Source: Symbiodinium sp. CCMP2592
Taxonomy: Eukaryota; Sar; Dinophyceae; Suessiales; Symbiodiniaceae
DNA: 64,000 nucleotides
Assembly: GCA_905221615.1 (NCBI GenBank)
Contig: CAJNDT010003424.1
Span: 205,001 to 269,000 of the forward strand
Reading direction: 5' to 3'
Each line of letters begins with the position of its first letter. The stretch's first letter is position 1. The translations under genes were made by a program, and so were the position numbers. The notes under the pieces were generated by a model. The model was not told where the DNA came from. It saw only the letters and a program-made list of their open reading frames with translations, and searched no databases. Of the stretch, positions 16,690-62,600 are shown piece by piece.

Positions 16690-17464
16690 GATTCCGACCT
16701 CAACGCCAAGGCACTCCCAGCCATGCTTCTTCAGCTGCTCGACTTCCTGGTATTTAATGATGCCCATGCGTTGGCTGCTCTTGAATGCGAAGGCTTATAG
16801 ACAAGTCCAGTGCACAGACTCTCCCCCACGATGGAAAGATTTTAGCACTATATGGGTCCTTGAAGATCAAGTCCACGGTGCGGGGAATCATTCCAGACTT
16901 CTCGGTCGCCTGCCAAGTCCAATGACGCTTCGAGTCGAGCGCTTTGGTGGCCAACTTCCACCTCCTCCGAGGCGGTGCCGGAGCCGGTCATTGTGAAGGT
17001 CTTGCCACTTCCTGTTTGCCTTGACAAGCGGTTCGAACGCGACCAACAATGCCACACTGGTGACAAGTAGGTCCAGGAAGGAGGCTCAGAGACCACGCGC
17101 TTGGGGCCTGTGACGACTCTACCTTCTGTACGCCAGTATAGGTGCGCAGACAGACGGACGTAAGTGCGTGAGTGCGAACATACCCACCTCCAGAAGTAGG
17201 TGCATGCGCAGTCTAGGGCCACAACAAAGCATATAAACAAAAATGAGGACAGGGATATCCCATGGAAGCACCCTGAAAAGGAAGGCCAACAAGGTAGGGA
17301 TATCCCGACAAAATGCTGCTTATGTGCTTTTGGAGTCCCTAAGTAGTGACCAACCGGCCGCAGCATTAGGGGCTGCTGTGCAACAAGGTTTCTGAGGGCC
17401 GGGCCCGTATGCCAGGATCGCCACCCGGTAGCCGTCAAGGGCCGATTGCACGAGCAGCGCGACC
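16690..17464 (-). CDS. kinesin motor domain, partial
   Basis: Four minus-strand exons join in phase: 17405-17464, 16962-17019, 16859-16909 and 16746 down to about 16690. They encode LLVQSALDGYRVAILAYG, the P-loop QTGSGKTFTMTGSG, then GMIPRTVDLIFK and EVEQLKKHGWECLGVEV. This matches the order in kinesins, where the P-loop is followed by GIIPR and the region before the EIYNE strand. Introns are 385 nt (GC donor), 52 nt (GT) and 112 nt (GA donor, at 16858). The N-terminal motor strand, the switch regions (SSRSH, DLAGSE) and the stalk were not found and should lie in unplaced exons on either side. The LVQSALDGY phrasing is most like C-terminal-motor (kinesin-14) proteins, but this short region cannot settle the class. 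Role: ATP-driven movement on microtubules. Confidence 0.85.
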
Positions 17465-17599
17465 CTTGAATGCAAGCAGACATGTGAATAGGTGGCAGGT
17501 GGCATTTCATGAGGTGGGACTCTGTCTTCAGATCCTGCGATCTCAAGACTAAGATGATCTTCTAAGAGCTGGTTTGTGCACATCTGCATGCTGACCATA

Positions 17600-20345: not shown

Positions 20346-23049
20346 TCACGGGCTCCGTTTCAAGCGGCGCAATAGGCTCGGAATCAAAAAGAACTGCTCC
20401 CGAGATCTGCAAGCATCTACGACGGCCTCCAGGCTCAAAACGTCCTGTGGCAGCTTTGCCCTGCTCAGATCATCGAGAAGAAAAAGTGCCCAAGACCACT
20501 GCAAACAGTCAGAGCATGAGGAAATGCTGGTATTAAAGCTAATGGACGTGCACTGAAGGCCCGAATTCCGGCAATTCAATAGAGACACAGCCTCAATCCA
20601 TCTGCCACTGCACGCTGCCATTGCTGCATTGTAGCAAACCGAGTCCACCTCACAGCTGCTTGAGGCGAGGTTTCCCCATAGTAGATCCAGCGTCCGACTC
20701 CAAAGTGCCACCTCTGTACAAGCACTTATCGTCGAACTGCAGCTGACTGGATCGAGCTCACGGGCACGATGGTTCCTCGTGGAATGAACCAAAGCAGACG
20801 GCTGAAAAAACAAGGCCATGTTTCGCTCCACATGCTACCGAACTTGAATGCCACGACCTACACCTGAAGCTATGGGTGGCACATTGGTGGTATCCCATCC
20901 TGAGCAGCCACAGCGAACTCTGCCAGAGGCTCTGGCGCTCGAATCCCCGCAGGGCAGCGCCGCTACAGACCTGGCGAGGGCTCTGCGACTCACATAATTA
21001 CCACATCCAGGTTTCTAGAGTGACCGGGCCTGGTTTACCTCCAGGGCTTCTTTGGACATCTCCAGAAGCAGGGCTGTGATCGACCGCCACTGACGTCCCG
21101 GGCCTAATGACGCAATGGCCGCGCTGCGGGTAAAGTCGTTCGAACGCAGAGAGCAACATGGCAAGGCGCCCAAAATGCCCAACGCCACGTGCCATCTGCC
21201 AGGCTCTACACTACTAAACAGGGAAGAGAATGTGATGACATTCGCCCGGAGTCCCTGACTTGACAACCTTTCTGCGCAGTGTGCCCCAAGTTGCCACCGA
21301 GATTGTTTCCCCAAGGTGCTCACAGCCACATTGTGGGCAATCAGGTCATCTTGCTCTCGCAAGGACTGCAGCGCGAAGACTCCGATTTCCCAGCTGTGTT
21401 TTGCACTGATGGACAGCACCGCGAGGCAAGCAGTGGCATCCAACTCGAGCTTCACCTTCAACATCTCCTGGAACCACCGAAGAGCCGCAGCTGCGTCGCT
21501 TTTACAAGCTTCGACCAAGTGGCAGTAGGTGACTGTAGTAGCTTCGATGGAGCGGCTGTGAAAATGCTGCAGCAGGCGTGCTGCCTGCTGCCATTGCTGC
21601 ACCTTCGCCAAGCAGCTCATCACAGAATTCAGTTGTGATACGCTTGGACTGGGTTGTAGTTGGGACACGAAAGGAATAAGGGCCACAGCAACTTGCCAGA
21701 CCCCGGATCGATCAAACATGGAGAAGGCGATGTTGAAGCTCACCTCCGTGGCGATGTGCAGCTGCTGGAAGAGCATAAGCATCTGCAGTCCAGCTTGCCA
21801 CTGGGAGTCGCTGGAACAACAGGAAAGCAGCGCATTGCCGACGAAAGCATTGGGACAAACTTTGCGCCGTGAGAAATCGACGAAGTGGACCAGTGCAACT
21901 TGCCACGCTCCTTTGTCGCATGCAGTGACGGATGAAGACAAAGTGATGGCATCGGGACCCATCTGGCATTTTCGCATGGCCTCCACATAGCCGGCTGCCC
22001 TTTGCCACTCGCCTACCGCTGCTGGAATACACTTTACGTCTCTAGGCCGTGCATCAACGCAACAAACGGAGCAAAGGATCCATCATCGTGTTGCAGGTTT
22101 CCAAGAAGCCCTCCACTGTCAGGAACCCCTTTTACTGCTGATGATCGCTGCACGCTGACACTAATAGGTCACTTCTAGTCCTATAGTACAGGTAGTTTTC
22201 CTTCTTTCGAAAAGATTCTTTGGACATCATCTCTCCTGAACGCAGGGACGAGATGGCAGCATTGAAGCTGGCGGCGTTTACACGCAAGGTTCTGGCAGCA
22301 CCTTCACGGAGAAGCTGCGCCGCAGACTTCCACTTTGTAGTCGAGCCGCATGCATTTACAGCTGTGCCAAAGTTTGCCATGTCAGGCGCAACGTCGAGGG
22401 ATTGCATTCTCTGCAACAGGTGGCAAGCGAGAGGCCAATGCTCCTCAGACTTGCCTGCGCATATACAGGCACTGTAGGTGACTGCATCAGGTAGTAAGTG
22501 CTCAGAGAAAAGATCCTGCAGGATGCACAAGACACGTCGCCACTCGCCACGCTTGGCGATCGAGTCGGCGAAGATGTTGAAGCTGACCGTGTCAGCAGAA
22601 ACTCCCACCTCAAATCTCTGACTCAGCATAGCGATCGCCCGCGGCCACCGCTCAGATCGTACAGCTGCGCTCAATATAGAATTGTAGCTGTTGGCTTCGC
22701 AGCTCAATCCTGCCGCCACCTCTTCCTCCACCAGCGCATACCCGCGTTCCCAGTCCCAGTCCTGTGTGGCTTTGAAGATAAGGGCGTTCCAGTGCACCGT
22801 GTTTGTCTCCACCAGTCCGAGCACCATGCTCCGGAGGACGGCCAAGGCCAGGGCGGGTTGGCGACCTGCCATGTGTCGGAGCACCACAGTGGCCTTCTGC
22901 GGGGCAGATCGCCAGGATGGGAGAAAAGGCTCCACTGCCCGGAAAACGTCTGAAGTCGAGAATGGCTCTTGAAGTCCCTCCAGTTGTTGGATCTCCGGCA
23001 ACTTCCTGCAAGACTGCTTGCCTCGACTTGCCGGTTGGGTTGCAGCCAT
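20346..23049 (-). CDS. pentatricopeptide repeat (PPR) protein, complete three-exon gene
   Basis: Exons 22236-23049, 21039-22012 and 20346-20756 sum to 2199 nt, exactly 733 codons including the TGA at 20346-20348, so the product is 732 residues. The start is the first in-frame ATG after an upstream TAG (23086-23088). The protein is built of about 15 degenerate 35-residue PPR units with the pattern V(S/T)(Y/F)N(A/S)xxSAC...GxWxxALxLL, for example DTVSFNIFADSIAKRGEWRR and DAITLSSSVTACDKGAWQVA. Both junctions restore perfect repeats: SLRSG|EWQRAAGYVEAM and KEALE|LDPVSCSSTISAC. Intron 1 (22013-22235) has a GA donor; intron 2 (20757-21038) is GT-AG. PPR proteins bind organelle RNA base by base and act in processing, editing or stability. 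Dinoflagellates have expanded this family and edit plastid and mitochondrial RNA heavily. No clear transit peptide is visible, and no DYW or SMR domain is present. Confidence 0.92.
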
Positions 23050-23549
23050 CTCAACACAGCCTTCGCCTTCATCATGCACACCAGCCTATCGCTCGGCAGG
23101 TGCTTTGGAGACGATGTGACTCTTGGCTCAAGCTGGGCTGCGGCCTACATGCAAGACTCATGCTGCGCAGTGCTGCGCAGAGCAGGGCTCTCACGTTTGA
23201 ACTTTCCCCTGCAGCAACCTATACGGAAGAAAATACACCTGCCGTGGCCGTCCGCCGGAGGCTTCAAAGCATAGAGATTTAAATCAAAACGCGAAGAGAT
23301 GTCAAGCCGGGCAACTGGAGTTGATGGCGAACTCCTTGGAAGTCGTGGCCGTTGAAACTCACAGGACTGGACGACCATGACCGAACAACTCCTGCTCGAC
23401 AAGCTGCAAAGATGGTCAGCCGAGGGGCAAGGACTGATGCCTTCGTCAACCTCGCTCTGCTACCACGCACCGTGTGCCGACTGTTTCTCATGACCTACTG
23501 CGCCGTGGAACCCAAGGCCCGCAGGAGAGCCTCCAATTCGAAGAAAGTC
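23050..23549. other. upstream flank of the PPR gene
   Basis: No exon recognised. The dinoflagellate-leader-like TTGGCTCAAG at 23123-23132 is on the plus strand, opposite to the gene, and is probably chance. Confidence 0.3.
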
Positions 23550-26994: not shown

Positions 26995-27066
<72 letters not shown>

Positions 27067-27123
27067 GACGAGTACTAGTACTAGCACTAGCACTAGCACT
27101 AGCAGTAGCACTAGCACTAGCAG

Positions 27124-27154
<31 letters not shown>

Positions 27155-27295
27155 AACTACTACTACTACTCCTACTACTACTCCTACTCCTACTCCTACT
27201 CCTACTCCTACTCCTACTCCTACTCCTACTACTACTACTACTACTACTACTAGTACTGCTACTACTACTACTACTACTACTACTACTAGTACTAG

Positions 27296-27360
<65 letters not shown>

Positions 27361-27408
27361 GTACTGCTACTACTACTACTACTACTACTACCACGACTAC
27401 TACTACTA

Positions 27409-27457
<49 letters not shown>

Positions 27458-27660
27458 GACTACGACAGCACTACTAGCACTACCACGAGCACTACAACTA
27501 GCACTGCTACTAGCACTACTACCAGCACTACTACTAGCACTACTACTAGCACCACCACTACTGCTACTACTACTACTACCACCACTACCACTACTTCTAC
27601 TACTACGACGACGATGACGACTACCACTACTACTTCGACTACTACCTCTACTACCTGCTA
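26986..27660. repeat. (CTA)n trinucleotide microsatellite with variant blocks
   Basis: About 670 nt of (CTA)n / (TAC)n, interrupted by blocks of CTAGCA, CTCCTA and CTACCA variants. Frames through it give poly-Val, poly-Ser or poly-Thr and are artefacts. Confidence 0.97.
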
Positions 27661-27737
27661 CTTGCTAACTACTTCCTACTACCTACTACCGAATACCTAG
27701 TACTTAATTCTTAGTTACCCAACAATTTGCCAATAAT

Positions 27738-27860
27738 TGTAGTAGTAGTAGTAGTAGCAGTAGTAGTTAATAGTAGCAGCAGCTGGAGGAGTAGCAGCAG
27801 CAGTAGTAGCAGTAGCAGTAGCAGTAGCAGTAGCAGTAGCAGTTGTAGCCGTCGCGGTAG
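27738..27860. repeat. (TAG/CAG)n microsatellite, inverted relative to the (CTA)n block
   Basis: About 120 nt of TAG and TAGCAG repeats on the same strand, i.e. the reverse complement of the CTA block ending about 80 nt to the left. The two could fold back on each other. Confidence 0.9.
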
Positions 27861-43434: not shown

Positions 43435-43520
43435 GTTCGTACGCATGTGTATACATATATATATATATATATATATGAGGCAGGAACCTTTATGTATAAT
43501 GTGTCGCTCGTTCTTTGTGT
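43435..43520 (-). repeat. left inverted box of the repeat block
   Basis: On the minus strand this contains CACATTATACATAAAGG followed 8-9 nt later by (AT)n and a TATGTA-rich tail. The same arrangement occurs on the plus strand at 51525-51575, so the two copies are inverted and enclose the tandem array. Confidence 0.75.
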
Positions 43521-43679
43521 AAATACTACAAATAAATCGTCTATACACTGCAACATTATGTTTTTTATCGACAGCTGCCTTATGGGACAGCACCACTGGA
43601 GGGTCGATGAGCATGGCACGTGCAACAACTTCGGAGACACCGCAAGCACTGACTGCTATTTTGAAACAGGGCCCTCGCC

Positions 43680-46600
43680 TGTCTGACTAGGTTGGAGGAG
43701 TCCCACCCTCTCTTCTTGAACGTATGCTCGATTCCCCCTTTTGAAAGGTAACGCGGATAGACAGGATCTCCTTCCCCTACCTAGAAAGAAGGAGGTCTAT
43801 GCTCATGGTTTAACAGAGCTCTCTTCTTGCTCGATAACTCGTAGGGACCTGTCTGTCGGTTTATGGAAATGGAGCTTTCTTCTGTCTCATTAGATTGGAT
43901 GAAGCTTTCAGCCCCCTCTTGTCGAAGATAAGGTAGAAGGCTTTTCGAGAAGCCAGGGGAGCTGTGCCCTCTCTTGCCACGGGGTCTCTTCCTCTACCGA
44001 GAGGTAACGGAGCTCTCTTCTAGAAAGAAGCTGTCTTCTCTTACCAGGAGTAACTTGGAGTGAGTTCTCTTCTTGTTTCAGAGGATGAGGTAGAGGGCTT
44101 CTCATATCCTGTTTGAAGGCCGAACGAAGGGAGGACCAGACGTCTCTCGTCAAGGTTCGAAGTTTGGAAGAACTCCATCCTTTCTTCTTGATCGTAAGCT
44201 CTCTTCCTTTGTCTTGTAGAAGAGAGGTAGTGGGGGGGTAGCTCTGTCCTCTCTTGCTAGGAGTGAGGTCTCTTCACTGTTCTCAAGACTAAGACTTACC
44301 AAGAGGTAAGTAATGGAGCTCGCTTCTCTCACCACGAACAACTTGCAGGGGAGCCCTCTTGTTGTTCTAGAGCATGAGGTGGAGGAGTTCTCTTTCTTGT
44401 GGAAGGTTGAGGAGAGGACCAGACTTCTTTGTTTGAAGGTTGGGGGAGCCCCACCCTTTTTCTTGAGCGTATGCTCTCTTCCATTTTCTGAAGGGGTGAA
44501 GTTTTGGATAGGCAGGATCTCTTTCCCTTACCTAGAGAGAAAGTTGGCCTCCTCTTGATGACTGGGGAAACTACAATATCTGTAAAAGGGCAGCACGAAT
44601 CAAAAATACAGGGCGACGCGACCGTAAAACCCCACAAGCAAGCAGAGCTCTTTTCTTTCTCGATAACTTGGAGGGGCCCGTCTGTCATTTTTGAGATGGA
44701 GCTCTCTTCTGATCGGAAGCTCTGTTCCATGTTTTGAAGAGGAGGGGGGAGATGGTCAGGAGTTCTCGCCCCTGACTAAGAGAGAAAGGAGTCTTCTTGT
44801 CGACTGTCGACAGCGAAGTAAACACACCTCTCTTCTTTCTCGAGAAATTGGAGGAGCCTCTCTTCTGAATTGTTGGGGTAGAAGACCTGTCAGGGGATCT
44901 CTTCCTCCATCAAAGGGTACACGAGCAGCCCTCTTCTGTCTTGCGAAATTGGAGGGAGCTTTCTTCCTGCTTTGCACGATTAGGTAGAGAACTCAATAAC
45001 CTGGAAGTGCCGGTCTATCTTATTTCGAAATCGAGCTCTCTTCTGTATCATTGGATTGTATGAAGCTCTCAGTCTCCTCTTGTCGAGGCTGAGGCAGCGG
45101 GCTTTTCTGTTTGGAACGAGGAAGAGGAGATACTCAGGAGCTTTCTTAATTTCCCTGGCCAAGAGAGAAAGGAGGCTTCTTCTGGCCGACTGAGGGGTAG
45201 ACGGAGCGCTCTTCTCTCTCACGAAGTTGGAGGGGCTTGACTGCTATTTTGCAATAAAGCCCTCGTCTGTCTCACAAGGTTGGAGGAGTCCCACCCTCTC
45301 TTCTTGAACGTATAGGGTATGCTTGCTTCCCTCTTTTGCAAGGTAATGGGGGTAGTCAGGGTCTCCTTCCCTTACCTAGAAAGAAGGAGGTCTCGGCTGA
45401 TGGGTTAACGGAGCCCCCTTCTTGCTCGATAACTCGTAGGGACCTGTCTGTCGGTTTATGGAATGGAGCTTTCTTCTTTCTCATTAGATTGGATGAAGCT
45501 TTCAGTCCCCTCTTGTCGAAGATGAGGTAGAAGGCTTTTCGAGAAGCCAGGGGAGCTCCCCTCTCTTGCCAGGGGGTCTCTTCCTCTACTGAGGATGAGG
45601 TAGAGGGCTTCTCATCTCCTGTTTGAAGGCCGGGCGAAGGGAGGACCAGACGTCTCTCGTCAAGGTTGGAAGTTTGGAAGAGCTCCATTCTTTCTTCTTG
45701 ATCGTAAGCTCTCTTCCCTTGTCTTGTAGAAGAGAGCTCTGTCCTCTCTTGCTAGGAGTGAAGTCTCTGCACTGTTCTCAAGACTAAGAAGCGACTTACC
45801 AAGAGGTAATGGAGCTCGCCGCTCTTACTACGAATAACTTGCAGGGGAGCCCTCTTGTTGCTTGAGAGCATGAGGTGGAGGAGTTCTCTTTCTTGTGGAA
45901 GGTTGGAGAGAAGACCAGACTTCTTTGTTTGAAGGTTGGGGGAGACCCACCCTTTCTCTTGAGCGTATGCTCTCTCCATTTTCTGAAGAGGTCAAGTTCA
46001 GGCAGGATCTCCTTCCCTTACCTAGAGAGAAAGTTGGCCTCCTCTTGATGACTGAGGAAACTACAATATCTTTAAAAGGGCAGCACGAATCAGAAATACA
46101 GGGCGACGCGACCGTAAAACCACACAAGCAAGCGGAGCTCTTTTCTTTCTCGATAACTTGGAGGGGCCCGTCTGTCATTTTTCAGAGCTCTCTTCTGATC
46201 GGAAGCTCTCTTCCATGTTTTGAAGAGAAGGGGGGAGATGGTCAGGAGTTCTCGCCCCTGACTAAGAGAGAAAGGAGTCTTCTTGTCGACTCTCGACAGA
46301 GATGTAAACACACCTCTCTTCTTTCTCGAGAAATTGGAGGAGCCTCTCTTCTGAGTTGTTGGGGTAGAAGACCTGTCAGGGGATCTCTTCCTCCATCAAA
46401 GGGTACAGGAGCAGCCCTCTTCTGTCTTGCGAAATTGGAGGGAGCTTTCTTCCTGTTTTGGACGATTAGGTAGAGAACCCAATAACCCAATAACTTGGAA
46501 GTGCCGGTCTATCGCTCTCTTCTGTATCATTGGATTCAGCGAGCTTTTCTGTTTGGAACGAGGAAGAGGGGATACTCAGGAGCTCTCTGAATTTCCCTTG

Positions 46601-49600
46601 CCAAGAGAGAAAGGAGGCTTCTTCTGGCCGACTGAGGGGTAGACGGAGCGCTCTTCTCTCTCACGAAGTTGGAGGGGCTTGACTGCTATTTTGCAATAAA
46701 GCCCTCGTCTGTCTCACAAGGTTGGAGGAGTCCCACCCTCTCTTCTTGAACGTATAACGTATGCTCGCTTCCCTCTGTTGCAAGGTAACGGGGATAGTCA
46801 GGACTTCCTTCCCTTGCCTAGAAAGAAGGAGGTCTCTGCTGATGGGTTAACGGAGCTCTCTTCTTGCTCGATAACTCGTAGGGACCTGTCTGTCTGTTTA
46901 TGGAAATGGAGCTCTCTTCTTTCTCATTAGATTGGATGAAGCTTTCAGTCCCCTCTTGTCGAAGATGAGGTAGAAGGCTTTTCGAGAAGGCAGGGGAGCT
47001 GTGCCCTCTCTTGCCACGGGGTCTCTTCCTCTACCGAGAGGTAACGGAGCTCTCTTCTAGAAAGAAGCTGTCTTCTCTTACCAGGGGTAACTTGGAGTGA
47101 GTTCTTTTCTTGTTTCAGAGGATGAGGTAGAGGGCTTCTCATCTAAGGCCGGACGAAGGGAGGTCCAGACGTCTCTCGTCAAGGTTGGAAGTTTGGAAGA
47201 ACTCCATCCTTTCTTCTTGATCGTAAGCTCTCTTCCTTTGTCTTGTAGAAGAGAGGGAGTGGGGGGGTAGCTCTGTCCTCTCTTGCTAGGAGTGAGGTCT
47301 CTTCACTGTTCTCAAGACTAAGACTTACCAAGAGGTAAGTAATGGAGCTCGCCGCTCTTAGCACGAATAACTTGCAGGGGAGCTCTCTTGTTGTTCTAGA
47401 GCATGAGGTGGAGGAGTTCTCTTTCTTGTGGAAGGTTGAGGAGAGGACCAGACTTCTTTGTTTGAAGGTTGGGGGAGCCCCACCCTTTCTCTTGAGCGTA
47501 CGCTCTCTTCCATTTTCGGAAGAGGTCAAGTTGGACAGGCAGGATCTCCTTCCCTTACCTAGAGAGAAAGTTGGCCTCCTCTTGATGACTGAGGAAACTA
47601 CAATATCTTTAAAAGGGCAGCACGAATCAAAAATACAGGGCGCCGCGACCGTAAAACCACACAAGCAAGCGGAGCTCTTTTCTTTCTCGGTAACTTGGAG
47701 GGGCCCGTCCGTCATTTTTGAGAGCTCTCTTCTGATCGGAAGCTCTCTTCCGTGTTTTGAAGAGGAGGGGGGAGATGGTCAGGAGTTCTCGCCCCTGACT
47801 AAGAGAGAAAGGAGTCTTCTTGTCGACTGTCGACAGAGAGGCAAACACACCTCTCTCCTTTCTCGAGAAATTGGAGGAGCCTCTCTTCTGAGTTGTTGGG
47901 GTAGAAGACCTGTCAGGGGATCTCTTCCTCCATCAAAGGGTACAGGAGCAGCCCTCTTCTGTCTTGCGAAATTGGAGGGAGCTTTCTTCCTGTTTTGGAA
48001 GATTAGGTAGAGAACCCAATAACTTGGAAGTGCCGGTCTATCTTATTTCGAAACCGAGCTCTCTTCTGTACCATTGGATTCAGCGGGCTTTTCTGCTTGG
48101 AACGAGGAAGAGGAGATACTCAGGAGCTCTTAATTTCCCTTGCCAAGAGAGAAAGGAGGCCTCTTCTGGCCGACTGAGGGGTAGACGAAGCGCTCTTCTC
48201 TCTCCCGAAGTTGGAGGGGCTTGACTGCAAAGGCCCTCGTCTGTCTCACAAGGTTGGAGGAGTCCCACCCTCTCTTCTTGAACGTATAGGGTATGCTTGC
48301 TTCCCTCTTTTGAAAATTTTGAAAGGCAACGGGGATAGTCAGGATCTCCTTCCCTTACCTACAAAAAGGAGGTCTCTGCTGATGGGTTAACGGGGCTCCC
48401 TTCTTGCTCGATAACTCGTAGGGACCTGTCTGTCTGTTTATGGAAATGGAGCAGCCCCCTCTTGTCGAAGATGAGGTAGAAGGCTTTTCGAGAAGCCAGG
48501 GGAGCTCTGCCCTCTCTTGCCAGGGGGTCTGTTCCTCTACCGAGAGATAACGGAGCTCTCTTCTTGAAAGATGCTGTCTTCTTTTGGAGTAACTTGGAGT
48601 GAGTTCTCTTCTTGTTTCAAAGGATGAGGTAGAGGGCTTCTCATCTCCTGTTTGAAAGCCGGACCAAGGGGGACCAAACGTCTCTCGTCAAGGTTGGAAG
48701 TTTGGAAGAACCTTGATCGTGAGCTCTCTTCCTTTGTCTTGTAGAAGAGAGGGAGTGGAGGGGTGGCTCTGTCCTCTCTTGCTAGGAGTGAGGTCTCTTC
48801 ACTGTTCTGAAGACTAAGACTTACCAAGAGGTAAGTAAGGGAGCTCGCCGCTCTTACTACGAATAACTTGCAGGGGAGCCCTCTTGTTGTTTTAGAGCAT
48901 GAGGTGGAGGAGTTCTCTTTCTTGTGGAAGGTTGAGGAGAGGACCAGACTTCTTTGTTTGAAGGTTGGGGGAGACCCACCCTTTCTCTTGAGCGTACGCT
49001 CTCTTCCATTTTCTGAAGAGGTCAAGTTGGACAGGCAGGACCTCCTTCCCTTACCTACAGAGAAAGTTGGCCTCCTCTTGATGACTGAGGAAACTACAAT
49101 ATCTTTAAAAGGGCAGCACGAATCAAAAATACAGGGCGCCGCGACCGTAAAACCACACAAGCAAGCAGAGCTCTTTTTTTCTCGATAACTTGGAGGGGCC
49201 CGTCTGTCATTTTTGAGAGCTCTCTTCTGATCGGAAGCTCTCTTCCGTGTTTTGAAGAGGAGAGGGGAGATGGTCAGGAGTTCCCGCCCCTGACTAAGAG
49301 AGAAAGGAGTCTTCTTGTCGACTGTCGACAAAGAAGTAAACACACCTCTCTTCTTTCTCAAGAAATTGGAGGAGCCTCTCTTCTGAGTTGTTGGGGTAGA
49401 AGACCTGTCAGGGGATCTCTTCCTCCATCAGAGGGTACAGGAGCAGCCCTCTTCTGTCTTGCGAAATTGGAGGGAGCTTTCTTTCTCTGTTGGACGATTA
49501 GGTAGAGAACTCAATAACCTGGAAGTGCCGGTCTATCTTATTTCGAAATCGAGCTCTCTTCTGTATCATTGGATTGGATGAAGCTCTCAGTCTCCTCTTG

Positions 49601-50440
49601 TCGAGGCTGAGGCAGCGGGCTTTTCTGTTTGGAACGAGGAAGAGGAGATACTCAGGAGCTTTCTTAATTTCCCTGGCCAAGAGAGAAAGGAGGCTTCTTC
49701 TGGCCGACTGAGGGGTAGACGGAGCGCTCTTCTCTCTCACGAAGTTGGAGGGGCTTGACTGCTATTTTGCAATAAAGCCCTCGTCTGTCTCACAAGGTTG
49801 GAGGAGTCCCACCCTCTCTTCTTGAACGTATAACGTATGCTCGCTTCCCTCTGTTGCAAGGTAACGGGGATAGTCAGGACTTCCTTCCCTTGCCTAGAAA
49901 GAAGGAGGTCTCTGCTGATGGGTTAACGGAGCTCTCTTCTTGCTCGATAACTCGTAGGGACCTGTCTGTCTGTTTATGGAAATGGAGCTCTCTTCTTTCT
50001 CATTAGATTGGATGAAGCTTTCAGTCCCCTCTTGTCGAAGATTTGGTAGAAGGCTTTTCGAGAAGGCAAGGGAGCTGTGCCCTCTCTTGCCACGGGGTCT
50101 CTTCCTCTACCGAGAGGTAACGGAGCTCTCTTCTAGAAAGAAGCTGTCTTCTCTTACCAGGGGTAACTTGGAGTGAGTTCTTTTCTTGTTTCAGAGGATG
50201 AGGTAGAGGGCTTCTCATCTCCTGTTTGAAGGCCGGACGAAGGGAGGACTAGACGTCTCTCGTCAAGGTTGGAAGTTTGGAAGAACTCCATGCTTTCTTC
50301 TTGATCGTAAGCTCTCTTCCTTTGTCTTGAAGAAGAGAGGCAGTGAGGGGGTGGCTCTGTCTTCTTTGCTTGGAGTGAGGTCTCTTCACTGTTCTCAAGA
50401 CTGCAAAGCGACTTACCAAAAGGTATACTGGAACTCTCTT
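43680..50440. repeat. higher-order tandem array, about 4.5 units of roughly 1.5 kb
   Basis: A landmark CTGACTAAGAGAGAAAGGAG recurs at 44772, 46258, 47795 and 49290 (spacings 1486, 1537 and 1495). Another, GGAGTCCCACCCTCTCTTCT, recurs near 43693, 45285, 46726, 48257 and 49800. Within each unit a short purine/pyrimidine motif around GGAGCTCTCTTCT recurs every few dozen bases, so the array looks like diverged short repeats organised into larger units. Units differ by many small insertions, deletions and substitutions. Frames up to about 274 codons occur on both strands but are not conserved as protein. Confidence 0.93.
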
Positions 50441-50520
50441 CGCTCCGGTTTGGTGGCTCAGAGGCTGGAATCCGCTGGAATCCAACCCAGGCAGATCACA
50501 ACCTACGCACAAGCCCCTCC

Positions 50521-51490
50521 CGGTTTAGATAGTTTAGATAGTTTGAATAGTTTAGATAGTTTGGGCCCCCCCCGTGCCCCCCAAACTATCTAAACTCAGG
50601 GGCGAAACCCGCAAAGGGGCGTAACCCGCTCCGGGGCGAAACCCGCTCAGGGGCGAAACCCGCTCAGGGGCGAAACAGAGGCGAAACCCGCAAAGGGGCA
50701 AAACCCGCTCCGAACCCGCTCAGGGGCGTAACCCGCAAAGGGGCGAAACCCGCTCAGGGCGAAACCCGCACAGGGGGAAGGAAACCCGCTCAGGGGCGAA
50801 ACCCGCTTAGGGGGGCGAAATGCGCTCAGGGGCGAAACCCGCACAGGGGCGAAACCCGCTCCGGGCGAAACCCGCTCAGGGGGGAAACCCGCTCAGGTGC
50901 GCTCTGGTCTAAACCCCTCCCGTTTTAGATAGTTTGGGTAGTTTGGGCCCTTCCCCGTGCCACCCCGAACTATCTAAACTATCTAAACCCCTCTCTCTCC
51001 AGACCGACGGGAGACACCCAAACTATCTAAACTGGGAGGGGTTTAGATAGTTTAGATAGTTTGGGTGGCACGGGGGAAGGCCCAAACTATCTAAACTATC
51101 TAAACCCCTCTCTCTCCAGACCAACGGGAGACCCCCAAACTATCTAAACTATCTAAACTATCCAAACTATCTAAACTATCTAAACCGGGAGGGGTTTAGA
51201 TAGCTTAGATAGTTTGGGTGGCACGGGGGAAGGCCCAAACTATCTAAACTACCTAAACCCCTCTCTCTCCAGACGAACGGGAGACCCCCAAACTATCTAA
51301 ACTATCTAAACTATCCAAACTATCTAAACTATCTAAACCGGGAGGTTTAGATAGTTTAGATAGTTTGGGTGGCACGGGGGAAGGCCCAAACTATCTAAAC
51401 TATCTAAACCGGGATGGGTTTAGATAGTTTAAATAGTTTGGATAGTTTGAGCCCTCCCCGGCGTCCCACAAACTATCTAAACTATCCAAT
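50521..51490. repeat. hairpin-forming TTTAGATAG modules
   Basis: Repeats of TTTAGATAGTTTAGATAG are followed 20-30 nt later by their reverse complement (CTATCTAAACTATCTAAAC), with a spacer such as TTTGGGTGGCACGGGGGAAG. Modules recur around 50523, 50932, 51038, 51194, 51344 and 51418, separated by CCTCTCTCTCCAGACC and GGGAGACCCCCAAAC. Confidence 0.93.
50592..50905. repeat. 17-bp minisatellite GAAACCCGCTCAGGGGC
   Basis: About 18 imperfect copies of GGGGCGAAACCCGCTCA, with variants CGCAAA, CGCTCC and CGTAAC, sit between two TTTAGATAG modules. Confidence 0.93.
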
Positions 51491-51524
51491 CCCCTTCTGG
51501 CTTAAATACCCCAAACAGGAACGC

Positions 51525-51612
51525 CACATTATACATAAAGGCTTCTCTTACATACATATATATATATATATATGCTCACCCCCCCCCCCCGGTGACAGAC
51601 CACGGGTCTAAA
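51525..51612. repeat. central double box (right arm of first pair, left arm of second)
   Basis: CACATTATACATAAAGG and (TA)n match the box at 43.44-43.52 kb in inverted orientation. The continuing GCTCAC-poly(C)-GGTGACAGACCA matches the box at 53.82 kb, also inverted. This site therefore serves as a boundary for both repeat-bounded segments. Confidence 0.75.
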
Positions 51613-53320
51613 AAACACCGTGCACAACGATATTCTGTGAAGCAAAACCGTTACATGAGGTATATAGTATAGCACCAGACGTGCGGCACATGAGTTACGT
51701 AATAGTCTTGTGGTAGTATCGGTATTAGGGTGAGTATTGTTATTAATATTAGTACTATTGCTTGCTGTAAGTATACGTATCAATATTGCCAACTATAAAT
51801 TAGTGTTAGTGCTCATGTTCGTGTTAGAGTTAGCGCTAGTGCCAGTGTCAATGTCAGTAATACAGCACCACTGCTACGAGTAGTATCAGTATCAGTCTTA
51901 ATGCTGGGTTTAACAGCAGCTTATATTCGCAGAAGTGCTAGTATTAGTATCAATATTAGAACTAGTTAGTTTTGATATGTTAGTATATTGATAGTCTCGT
52001 ATATTAGCAGATTAGTATATCAATACATCAATGTATTCGGACAGCAAAATATTTGCATACTTGTATACTAGTATATTTTACATGTTAGTACAACTGGTGC
52101 ATGACTACACTACTATACTGCTGTATTAGCTTACTAGTATATTGACATACCAGTATATTCGTACGTTAGCATATTAGTGTACGAATATGTGTACTATATT
52201 ACTGTTTTATCTAATCATGTATAAGTATATCAGTATGTTGGCATATTAGTATACGAACTTGTCATGTCGGTATTCTTGCATAGTGCAGTAGCCGTATATG
52301 ATTATAGTCACATATTCGTATAGTATATTCATACAACAACGAGAAGTATATTGATACATTGGTATATGGGTATATGCCTATGCCAAAGCATTAATACATG
52401 AATGCACTGATGTATATATCTGTATCTTAAGATAGTGGTACGTATTTTATGTACATGAGTATATGCAGGTGTCTATTAGTAATGGTATTAGTTTTCATAT
52501 CAATATGAATATACTATTGGTATTCGTAGGAGTATTAATGTCAATACTAGTAGAAGTAGGACTATTTATACTCGTAATAGCCATAATATGAGTGTTCATG
52601 CTGGTAATACTAGTGGCATTCTTGAATATGCAGCAGATTATCAAAGTCCGTATTAGTGTTGGTGATAGCACTACTGTTAACGCACAAGGGTTTACGTATT
52701 CGTATTCGTAGGAGTATAAATAGCTATGTAAATATTGATGTTAGTATAGATTTTGTGTTAAGTATTAGCAGTAGTGTTAGCGTTAGTACTATCATATTAT
52801 TGATGATATACATTCGAAAGAATGTTTGTATTGTTATTACTCTTGACCACGTGAAATTCTAACAGTTGAATTCATGAGTGAGTTAAAGGATTTGTATTTT
52901 AATATGGTGGTATGCATGTTTATGTACATTAGTACATACAGGTGTGTGTTAGTATTGGTATTATTATACATTATTATCAATATGAATATGGTTATTGATA
53001 TGCGTAGGAGTACTAAGAGCAATACTAATCAATCTTAGTATTTGTGTTATGCATATTCGTACTAAGCTTTATAGAAGTGTAATATTAGTAGTAATGCTGG
53101 TATTAGCTTGAGCATTCAACAAATGATCAATGTCAGTATGTTCAATGGCAATACTATATGTAGGAGTATCAATACATATATGTATATATAGATATACAGA
53201 TAGATAGAGAGATATTCGTGTAAATATGGGCATGAGTATTGACAGCCCTTGCCTTTGCAAGTAATCTGGTCCGATGCGGAGACTAGCACGACAAGGCGCG
53301 CGGGTGTCCTACCAAGAAAG
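51613..53320. repeat. AT-rich degenerate repeat region
   Basis: About 1.7 kb dominated by GTATTAGTAT, GTTAGTGT and TATATTAGTA-like words on the plus strand, much lower in GC than the rest of the window. No gene seen. A TATATATAGATATACAGATA stretch lies near 53180. Confidence 0.8.
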
Positions 53321-53419
53321 GAATTACAGAGCACACGTGTATGGATGAGGGTTGTGCTGATACACTACATAGTAAGCACTACACAGTAATCTTACTTGAG
53401 TCATATATAGAACAGATTC

Positions 53420-53755
53420 CAGCATTTCCAAAATTTCCAAAATTTCCAAAATTCTCTCCCCTAACTTTCCGCATTTCCAAAATTTCCAAAATTTCCAAAA
53501 TTTCCAAAATTTCCAAAATTTCCAAAATTTCCAAATTTCCAAAATTTCCAAAATTTCCAAAATTTCCAAAATTTCCCGACCTAGTCGACAGGATTTTTCC
53601 AAAACATAAGGGCGGACTTTTTGGAAATTTTGGAAATTTTGGAAATTTTGGAAATTTCGGAAATTTTGGAAATTTTGGAAATTTTGGAAACTTTGGAAAT
53701 CTGGAAAGTTAGGGGAGAGAATTTTGGAAATTTTGGAAATTTTGGAATTGAGGCT
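53420..53755. repeat. large hairpin of (CCAAAATTT)n and its inverse
   Basis: The left arm, about 53425-53577, is (CCAAAATTT)n, interrupted once by TCTCTCCCCTAACTTTCC. The right arm, about 53617-53752, is the reverse complement, including GGAAAGTTAGGGGAGAGA at the mirror position. The spacer of about 40 nt contains CTAGTCGACAGG. Frames through it give repeated NFG or FPK and are not genes. Confidence 0.95.
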
Positions 53756-53770
53756 TTGAAAGCTGAGTGC

Positions 53771-53882
53771 CCCCTCCCCCCGATCACAGACCATGCACTA
53801 CGACTGAGTCGAAAGGGTATGGTCTGTCATGGGGGGGGGGGGTGACCGTATATATATATATGTGTGTGTGTTCACAGTATGC

Positions 53883-53926
<44 letters not shown>
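53771..53926. repeat. right inverted box with (TA)n and (GA)n
   Basis: A local palindrome pairs CCCCGATCACAGACCAT with ATGGTCTGTCATGGGG. It is followed by poly-G, TGACC and (TA)n, then (GA)n at 53884-53926. The TGGTCTGTCA/poly-G/GTGA/(TA)n part is an inverted copy of the box at 51563-51612. Confidence 0.8.
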
Positions 53927-61974: not shown

Positions 61975-62091
61975 AATGACGACGAGCATAACTACCAGTA
62001 CTACTAGTACTAGTACTAGTACCAGTACTGCAACTACTGTTCCTGCTACTGCTACTACTACTACTACTACGACTACGACGACGACGACTAT

Positions 62092-62167
<76 letters not shown>

Positions 62168-62255
62168 GACAACTACGACGACTACTACTTCTACTACTAC
62201 TGCCACTACCACTACCACTACCACTACCACTACTACTACTACTACGACGACGACT
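61975..62255. repeat. (CTA)n trinucleotide microsatellite, second block
   Basis: TACTAG and ACTACT repeats, then a nearly pure (CTA)n tract at about 62090-62165, ending in CTACCA and CGA variants. Similar in make-up to the block at 27 kb. Confidence 0.95.
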
Positions 62256-62600
62256 ACTATGAAAAGAAAACGGGCGATAATGAAGAAAACAGTCGATGTA
62301 ATGACGCAAACTATTTCAAGTATTACTAAAGCACCAATAAGAAACAGTAGAAAAAAGTAACAGTAAATATGTTAAAGACAAGCGTAGTGGCAATGATGAT
62401 AACAGCAATAATGCCGCAGGTGCTGCTGCTTGTTGCGACGACCAAGAGGAGAACGGCGACAACAACACCACCAGTGTTGCTGCTTCTGCCGCTGCTGCTA
62501 TTAATCGTGCTGAGACAATCTTTGGAACAGACCATCATTTCCAGCGGATTGAGTCGGATGTCTGAGAAGGTGCTGCCAACTCTAAGCGTACGTATTAGAA
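62256..62600. other. A-rich low-complexity and GCT/CAC-type repeats
   Basis: Low-complexity sequence with AAC/CAC and CTG/GCT runs at about 62455-62500; no gene seen. Confidence 0.5.

What the first reader, a model, noticed from the sequence alone, without database searches (positions are those of the whole stretch)
43435..53926. Nested, inverted-repeat-bounded 10.5-kb repeat structure
Three boxes organise this block. CACATTATACATAAAGG plus (AT)n occurs at 43.44-43.52 kb (minus) and 51.53-51.57 kb (plus). The (TA)n-TCAC-poly(C)-TGACAGACCA box occurs at 51.56-51.61 kb and again inverted at 53.77-53.86 kb. Each inverted pair encloses a distinct repetitive segment (a 1.5-kb tandem array and an AT-rich region), and the middle site is shared. 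This looks like one composite element, or two abutting elements with terminal inverted repeats, and carries no coding sequence. It could be a non-autonomous mobile element, a fold-back element or a structural chromosome region. I know of no named family with this layout.
Basis: partly seen in the sequence, partly recalled or inferred. Interest (0 to 1): 0.8.

Follow-up and report, generated by a model that had tools for sequence, protein, structure and literature searches.

The report
Two abutting microsatellite-targeting transposons in dinoflagellate
The block is two unrelated non-coding jumping-DNA elements that landed end to end in the same TA-repeat, one of them carrying a satellite-like tandem array; this resembles TA-repeat-targeting elements known from plants, here in an alga.

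Summary
The two boxes and their inverted pairing are real. They are terminal inverted repeats (TIRs) of two different, multi-copy, apparently non-coding DNA elements sharing one (TA)n tract, not one composite element. The genome is a peridinin dinoflagellate (1.098 Gb). Element 1 (43477-51551, 8,075 bp) has about 27-bp imperfect TIRs. In 22 outward pairs examined, 35 of 44 ends abut perfect (AT)n, and the target-site duplication (TSD) is probably 10 bp. Copies share TIRs but differ inside; 9 of 14 read in full carry 3-5 units of the ~1.5-kb repeat. Element 2 (51574-53847, 2,274 bp) is young: ten copies 99.0-99.7% identical, 153 inner ends genome-wide, TSD 8 bp (exact in 13 of 15, three informative). 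The junction searched for (element-1 GTAAG end, up to 30 nt, poly(C) end) occurs AT-spaced only here, so the stack looks like a coincidence of shared target preference. The layout matches microsatellite-targeted, modular TE arrays of plants (PMC4486113, PMC5907723). Differences: host, size, satellite cargo, a second family with 8-bp TSDs. No transposase was tied to either TIR. New variant of a known kind.

The parts
43453..43476 (.). (TA)n target tract left of element 1 (last 10 nt would be the left copy of the target duplication)
   Evidence: sequence; flanks of copies
43477..51551 (+). Element 1: apparently non-coding TIR element, 8,075 bp, family with box CCTTTATGTATAATGTG
   Evidence: ends fixed by comparison of 22 pairs; 387 box places at up to 2 mismatches vs 77 for the reversed pattern
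43477..43503 (+). Element 1 left TIR (GAGGCAGGAA CCTTTATGTATAATGTG)
43650..50445 (+). Tandem array of about 1.5-kb units, four marker copies
   Evidence: self-comparison, marker count
50511..51520 (.). Minisatellite tail: TTTAGATAG motifs, 17-bp GGGGCGAAACCCG array, 153-bp period array, many inverted arms
51525..51551 (-). Element 1 right TIR (reverse complement GTAAGAGAAG CCTTTATGTATAATGTG)
51552..51573 (.). (TA)n tract shared by both elements
   Evidence: sequence; junction pattern found AT-spaced only here
51574..53847 (+). Element 2: apparently non-coding poly(C)-ended TIR element, 2,274 bp
   Evidence: copies L039-L046, L051 at 96.5-98.7% by blastn (L045 in two pieces), 98.96-99.73% pairwise ignoring gaps
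51574..51602 (+). Element 2 left TIR: GCTCAC-poly(C)-GG-TGACAGACCA
53423..53750 (.). ATTTCCAAA/TTTGGAAAT fold-back inside element 2 (131-nt arms, 92% complementary)
53820..53847 (-). Element 2 right TIR (reverse complement GGTCAC-poly(C)-A-TGACAGACCA)
53848..53861 (.). (TA)n flank right of element 2 (first 8 nt match the left flank at 7 of 8)

Best explanation
The block holds two independent, non-autonomous cut-and-paste (class II) DNA elements. A DDE-type transposase made elsewhere is presumed to bind the TIRs, excise the element and join it to an A/T-alternating target. Element 1 makes a staggered cut of 10 bp and element 2 one of 8 bp. Both families prefer (TA)n, so the second insertion went into the (TA)n already flanking the first and the two now abut. 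Shown: sharp ends shared by copies, TIRs, the 8-bp duplication, target preference in the copies read, and independence of the two families. Well supported but on few informative cases: the 10-bp duplication. Inferred: that a transposase in trans moves them, its type (Mutator-like for element 1, less sure for element 2), the order of insertion, and that the ~1.5-kb array and minisatellites ride as passive cargo.
For: Outward-facing box pairs on many contigs (22 pairs among 100 listed places). All 22 share sharp G...C ends with different flanks. 35 of 44 element-1 ends abut a perfect 10-nt AT alternation, against 26 of 63,991 window 10-mers, these flanks included. Element-1 TSD of 10 bp: L028 has ATATATATGT on both sides; in an empty-site test the C610 left flank plus one ATCTAATTAT plus the C4940 right flank matches 40 of 40 scored copies of a dispersed ~115-bp repeat straight across the join, up to 99%. 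Element-2 TSD of 8 bp: 13 of 15 exact, including ATTTATTT (L046), ACATAATT (L058) and ATATGTAT (L041), none at 5, 7, 9 or 11; the L058 flanks overlap by 8 bases when mapped back. 153 element-2 inner ends, reversed control 0. Same TIRs with different interiors in L024, L030 and L034-L036. The junction pattern occurs AT-spaced once.
Against: No transposase was found between these TIRs; only part of the frames was scanned. The genome has MULE-type (11 matches), Merlin/IS1595-type (23) and few hAT-type (4) domains; the one MULE locus read (L077, 4.2 kb) has no box 1 within 3 mismatches and no TGACAGACCA within 1. For element 1 the count of exact repeats alone does not single out 10 bp (4, 6, 8, 10 and 12 bp: 16, 16, 15, 16 and 11 of 22); L028 and decide it. 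Six of 22 pairs lack an exact 10-bp repeat: window 9/10, L021 9/10, L068 9/10, L036 8/10, L063 8/10, L065 7/10 (counted by eye). The window's element-2 flanks match at 7 of 8. The empty-site join uses ends from two contigs: C610 stops inside its element, and C4940 has unmatched flanks.
Confidence: 0.91

Rival explanations
1. One composite or macro-transposon: the whole 10.4-kb block moves as a unit using the outer ends.
For: Outer ends both lie in (TA)n, so a unit-level duplication cannot be excluded at this one locus.
Against: The junction pattern exists AT-spaced once in the genome; in the copies read each family occurs without the other. The outer ends are different TIRs.
Confidence: 0.03
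2. Insertion into (TA)n is not direct integration: circular element copies with a short AT filler recombine by homology into existing (TA)n tracts, the model proposed for plant SaTars (PMC5907723).
For: Abutting poly(C)-element ends with a 5-nt ATATA spacer, shorter than the 8-bp duplication, at C2613, C2757 and C236. C236 shows other inner sequences, so it is another poly(C) family and the junction arose at least twice.
Against: C2613 and C2757 share the same right flank, so they are probably one event. Copies outside (TA)n have clean 8-bp duplications and 13 of 15 poly(C) elements are exact at 8 bp. C236 may be a deletion remnant. The reversed control of the junction search also gave 5 hits against 7. 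A second insertion overlapping the first element's last three bases could also give 5 nt.
Confidence: 0.12
3. Structural chromosome region (centromere-like satellite, replication or domain boundary) rather than mobile elements.
For: Long tandem arrays and hairpin-prone minisatellites without recognised genes.
Against: Dispersed copies with shared sharp ends, target duplications and empty sites; 153 places of the element-2 inner end.
Confidence: 0.02
4. Assembly join between contigs.
For: C4940 suggests that element-1 arrays can be misjoined or recombined: one flank is (TA)n, the other a repeat whose partner flank sits on C610.
Against: The window junction holds complete, correctly oriented ends of both families, and full copies with the same anatomy lie on other contigs.
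Confidence: 0.03

Closest known systems
SaTar elements (guayule, rice, sorghum, citrus), PMC5907723 (abstract, section 13 and the first part of section 16 read)
   Same: Non-coding TIR elements, mostly flanked by microsatellite, often (TA)n; 10-bp duplications outside microsatellites; unrelated elements abutting without nesting through a shared microsatellite
   Different: Guayule ones are about 0.4-1.7 kb, in plants, and tied to autonomous MULEs by TIR similarity; here 5.6-10.1 kb with satellite arrays (element 1), in a dinoflagellate, no autonomous partner linked, and element 2 duplicates 8 bp
MuTAnT (Medicago), PMC4486113 (first of four parts and passages read)
   Same: TIR elements targeting (TA)n; rare copies outside (TA)n reveal the duplication
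   Different: 9-nt duplication, 90% are 200-300 bp, with an autonomous mudrA-like element; no such partner found here
Pineapple Ac-mMITEs, PMC8449440 (passages read)
   Same: (TA)n-targeted and 9/10-bp-duplication forms within one family
   Different: 210-570 bp MITEs in a plant
Merlin elements of Symbiodinium, PMC8101967 (passages and section 11 read)
   Same: Dinoflagellate host, 8-bp duplications, imperfect TIRs, internal tandem repeats; one element-2 end starts GG
   Different: Merlin families there carry a transposase and their 5' TIR starts GG (3' end CC); element 2 has GG at one end and GC at the other, and no recognised transposase
Tetris (Drosophila virilis), PMC4079207 (search listing with start of abstract only)
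   Same: Mobile element linked to satellite DNA
   Different: Fold-back animal element; not compared in detail

Membership tests
SaTar-like microsatellite-targeted elements (way of working) | Most copies flanked by microsatellite, mainly (TA)n | tested here: met
   35 of 44 element-1 ends with perfect 10-nt AT alternation; 22 of 30 poly(C)-element ends with perfect 8-nt alternation. Copies were taken from the first places listed, not at random
SaTar-like microsatellite-targeted elements (way of working) | Non-nested end-to-end arrays of unrelated elements | tested here: met
   The window itself; in 4 of 22 element-1 pairs a poly(C/G) motif lies within 80 nt of the end across the (TA)n: window, L022, L023, L059 (both sides). 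Only the window's neighbour was read in full
Mutator-like elements (MULE), element 1 | Target duplication of 8-11 bp, usually 9-10 | tested here: met
   10 bp: L028, empty-site test
Mutator-like elements (MULE), element 1 | TIRs shared with an autonomous element encoding a MULE transposase | tested here: inconclusive
   11 MULE-domain matches; one locus read, no family TIR in its 4.2 kb; 10 loci not read
Merlin, element 2 | 8- or 9-bp target duplication | tested here: met
   13 of 15 exact at 8 bp
Merlin, element 2 | Both ends start 5'-GG | tested here: not met
   GGTCAC at one end, GCTCAC at the other in all 10 copies of the window's subfamily read
Merlin, element 2 | TIRs shared with an IS1595-type transposase element | not tested
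hAT, element 2 | 8-bp duplication and TIRs shared with a hAT transposase element | tested here: inconclusive
   8 bp met; only 4 short hAT-dimer matches in the genome, flanks not read. Defining features recalled
MITE | Short (under about 0.5-1 kb) non-coding TIR element | tested here: not met
   5.6-10.1 kb (14 elements) and 2.15-2.32 kb (10 elements)
Polinton/Maverick | Encodes polymerase B and integrase, 6-bp duplication (recalled) | tested here: not met
   No Pfam match over cut-off in the 29 frames scanned from these elements and relatives; duplication read as 10 bp

The most novel reading that the evidence does not exclude
In a dinoflagellate, at least two unrelated transposon superfamilies (10-bp and 8-bp duplications) have converged on (TA)n tracts, which serve as shared docking sites where elements stack end to end. 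One of them has turned into a large non-coding vehicle that disperses whole satellite arrays, and the poly(C) elements may pass through head-to-tail joined (circular) forms, as suggested by the 5-nt ATATA junctions.
Probability: 0.35. Interest if true: 0.6.

Novelty: new variant of a known kind. Interest (0 to 1): 0.42.

Why it matters
The microsatellite-targeting, modularly stacking elements I read about are from plants. I saw no report from dinoflagellates in the listings of five searches of open PubMed Central papers (15 of 237, 12 of 85, 12 of 41, 12 of 145 and 10 of 293 papers shown), nor in the passages found in a dinoflagellate genomics review (PMC11453091). If general, they would explain part of the long non-coding repeat blocks of dinoflagellate genomes as dispersed satellite-bearing transposons, and give a second lineage in which to ask how (TA)n is chosen as a target. 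Element 2 looks young enough for strain-level insertion tests.

Tried and rejected
Composite element: disfavoured and by copies of each family without the other. Coding cargo: nine frames in the block gave no Pfam match over cut-off (best 0.056); nor did 10 frames of L037, L038 and L076 (best 0.0099) or 10 frames of L019, L021, L022, L023, L026, L028 and L034 (best DUF5409 0.0014 in a low-complexity frame of L034, below cut-off). Frames under 200 aa of the other copies were not scanned. RNA family: none. hAT as source: only 4 domain matches. MULE locus C5205 (L077): transposase-like frames but neither family's box in 4.2 kb. The other end of single-ended element-1 copies: not found in the 10 kb read for L004 or the 8.2 kb read for L006; not looked for in L008. 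Very long pairs (C5004 29.6 kb, C5153 40.4 kb, C5140 19.9 kb from the far left end or 10.5 kb from the near one): not resolved. Empty site of L046: the only matches were its own two flanks. Empty site of L058: the right flank is repetitive, but no listed copy crosses the join convincingly. Poly(C) loci dropped from the duplication count because the second end was not recognised: L047, L050, L052, L053, L055, L057 (6 of the 21 loci scanned); L009-L016 were not put into that count. The poly(C) loci come from the first 100 places listed (contigs C1-C151), not from a random sample. One search's forward count of 1264 is inflated, since one C-run matches many times. My first reading that L034-L036 share only TIRs with the window was wrong for L034 and L035: one search looked at one strand only; one search show a diverged, reversed relative of the array there.

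Full report
What the window is. The window lies on contig C3424 of a 1.098-Gb, 5,383-contig assembly. Peridinin-chlorophyll protein (PF02429) gives 143 matches, best E 2.9e-61, and none in 14 control genomes, so the host is a peridinin dinoflagellate.

Observation. Both boxes are present and inverted as described. The first box has a chance expectation of 0.04 per window at up to 3 mismatches. The pairs enclose a tandem array of about 1.5-kb units (87-91% identical between units) with a minisatellite tail, and an AT-rich segment with a 131-nt-arm fold-back. No Rfam match and no Pfam match over cut-off in nine frames.

Element 1. Box 1 occurs at 387 genomic places with up to 2 mismatches, against 77 for the reversed pattern. 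The listing shows 100 of these places (69 exact, 31 with one mismatch). On it I counted 22 outward (-/+) pairs, 44 places; the other 56 places have no partner on the list, which is cut off and omits more diverged ends, so I cannot say how many are truly single. I read both ends of all 22 pairs. Nineteen pairs are 5.6-12.1 kb apart; C5140 is 19.9 kb from its far left end (10.5 kb from a nearer one, not used), C5004 29.6 kb and C5153 40.4 kb. In 21 of 22 one end reads GAGGCAGGAA or GTGGCAGGAA and the other GTAAGAG[AC]A[AG]; C5153 has the GTGG type at both ends. The ends are sharp and the flanks differ. 35 of 44 ends abut a perfect 10-nt AT alternation, a state of 26 of 63,991 10-mers in the window, its own (TA)n flanks included.

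Target duplication of element 1. Of the lengths tested, exact flank repeats occur at 4, 6, 8, 10 and 12 bp (16, 16, 15, 16, 11 of 22) and never at 9 or 11, as expected in (AT)n. These counts alone do not choose the length. One pair, L028, is informative and fits only 10 (ATATATATGT on both sides). A second test used two ends that lie in a non-TA sequence: C610 (left) and C4940 (right) both carry ATCTAATTAT. Joined with one copy of that 10-mer, the flanks match 40 of 40 scored copies (of 1,584 first-look candidates) of a dispersed ~115-bp repeat across the join, up to 99% identity. Those copies are empty sites. The caveat is that the two ends come from two contigs: C610 stops inside its element, and C4940's own left flank is (TA)n, so that copy looks chimeric by assembly or recombination.

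Cargo of element 1. Of 14 elements read in full, 9 (window, L019-L023, L026, L028, L032) carry 3-5 marker units of the 1.5-kb repeat. In the eight others of these, the first 1.7-2.1 kb match the window at 90.6-95.6%, mostly closer than units within the window's element, so arrays appear to have moved as part of the element (inference). Two (L024, L030) have no marker unit; they share the first 172 bp (83-84%) and diverged tail-type repeats in both directions. Two (L034, L035) share with the window the TIRs and a diverged relative of the array, in the opposite direction to the end types, over 22-30% of their length (longest pieces 67-73% identical). L036 shares the TIRs only. All 14 are 5.6-10.1 kb. 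No transposase was recognised in the frames scanned; short frames of the other copies were not scanned.

Element 2. Ten copies of the window's subfamily (window, L039-L046, L051) are 2,154-2,317 bp and 98.96-99.73% identical ignoring gaps (45 pairs). A 38-bp inner-end pattern occurs at 153 places with up to 3 mismatches (78 exact; reversed control 0). In 15 poly(C) elements of this and related subfamilies with both ends recognised, flanks are exact at 8 bp in 13, including three not in perfect (TA)n: ATTTATTT (L046), ACATAATT (L058), ATATGTAT (L041); none is exact at 5, 7, 9 or 11. The two that fail at 8 are the window and L048, each with one mismatch. Mapping the L058 flanks back gives an 8-base overlap. 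L046 and L058 show that (TA)n is a target, not part of the element.

Relation of the two. The junction of an element-1 GTAAG end with a poly(C) end within 30 bp occurs at two places, the window and C645, and the latter has no AT spacer. That pattern does not cover the other element-1 end or longer spacers. In the flanks read, none of the other 21 element-1 pairs has the window's element 2 as neighbour; three (L022, L023, L059) have other poly(C/G) motifs within 80 nt, and for eight pairs at least one flank was only 46-59 nt long. Nine of 9 other full-length element-2 loci contain no box 1. The window block is therefore best read as a chance stack of two families with the same target preference.

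Poly(C) junctions. Abutting poly(C) ends within 30 bp occur at 7 places, reversed control 5, so the two without AT spacer (C480, C5025) may be chance. C236, C2613 and C2757 have the same ATATA spacer, 5 nt, shorter than the 8-bp duplication; C348 has 10 nt and C4612 12 nt. C2613 and C2757 share their right flank and are probably one event; C236 is another poly(C) family and may be a remnant. This fits, but does not show, joined or circular forms like those proposed for SaTars.

Mechanism. Cut-and-paste integration into A/T-alternating DNA with 10- and 8-bp staggers is supported by ends, duplications and empty sites. The enzymes are not identified: MULE domains 11, IS1595/Merlin domains 23, hAT dimer 4; the one MULE locus read lacks these boxes. 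For element 1 a MULE source is my best guess because duplication length and TA targeting match plant MULE-derived families (PMC4486113, PMC5907723, PMC8449440). For element 2 a Merlin source is possible (8 bp; Merlin with tandem repeats known in Symbiodinium, PMC8101967), but one end does not start GG.

Comparison and novelty. The layout, unrelated TIR elements stacked through shared (TA)n without nesting, is known from plants. Not seen by me elsewhere, within the listings, are the dinoflagellate host, the large satellite-bearing element, and two families with different duplication lengths sharing the target.

Noticed in passing
window 20346-23085 (-): Pentatricopeptide-repeat frames at 21015-22082 and 22132-23085 (PPR_2 E 7.6e-13 and 6e-12); the frame at 20346-20834 had no Pfam match. 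PPR genes are abundant in dinoflagellates (recalled).
   Followed up: no
window 16848-17561 (-): Frame with a TGSGKTFTMTGSG stretch that looks like a kinesin-type P-loop (recalled); no Pfam match as a fragment.
   Followed up: no
window 26995-27848 and 61991-62259: Long TAC/GTA and ACT trinucleotide arrays.
   Followed up: no
L007 flank and L066 flank (C610, C4940): A ~115-bp imperfectly palindromic repeat with at least 40 near-identical copies (1,584 first-look candidates), itself perhaps a small mobile element.
   Followed up: partly
L078, L079, L080 (C2613, C2757, C236): Abutting poly(C) element ends with an identical 5-nt ATATA spacer.
   Followed up: partly
L077 (C5205:20300-24500): MULE-like transposase spread over at least three open frames, the last with a SWIM-like zinc-finger stretch (recalled); five copies with the same score in the genome.
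   Followed up: partly
G000 C1035, C722, C784: Large arrays of peridinin-chlorophyll protein genes.
   Followed up: no
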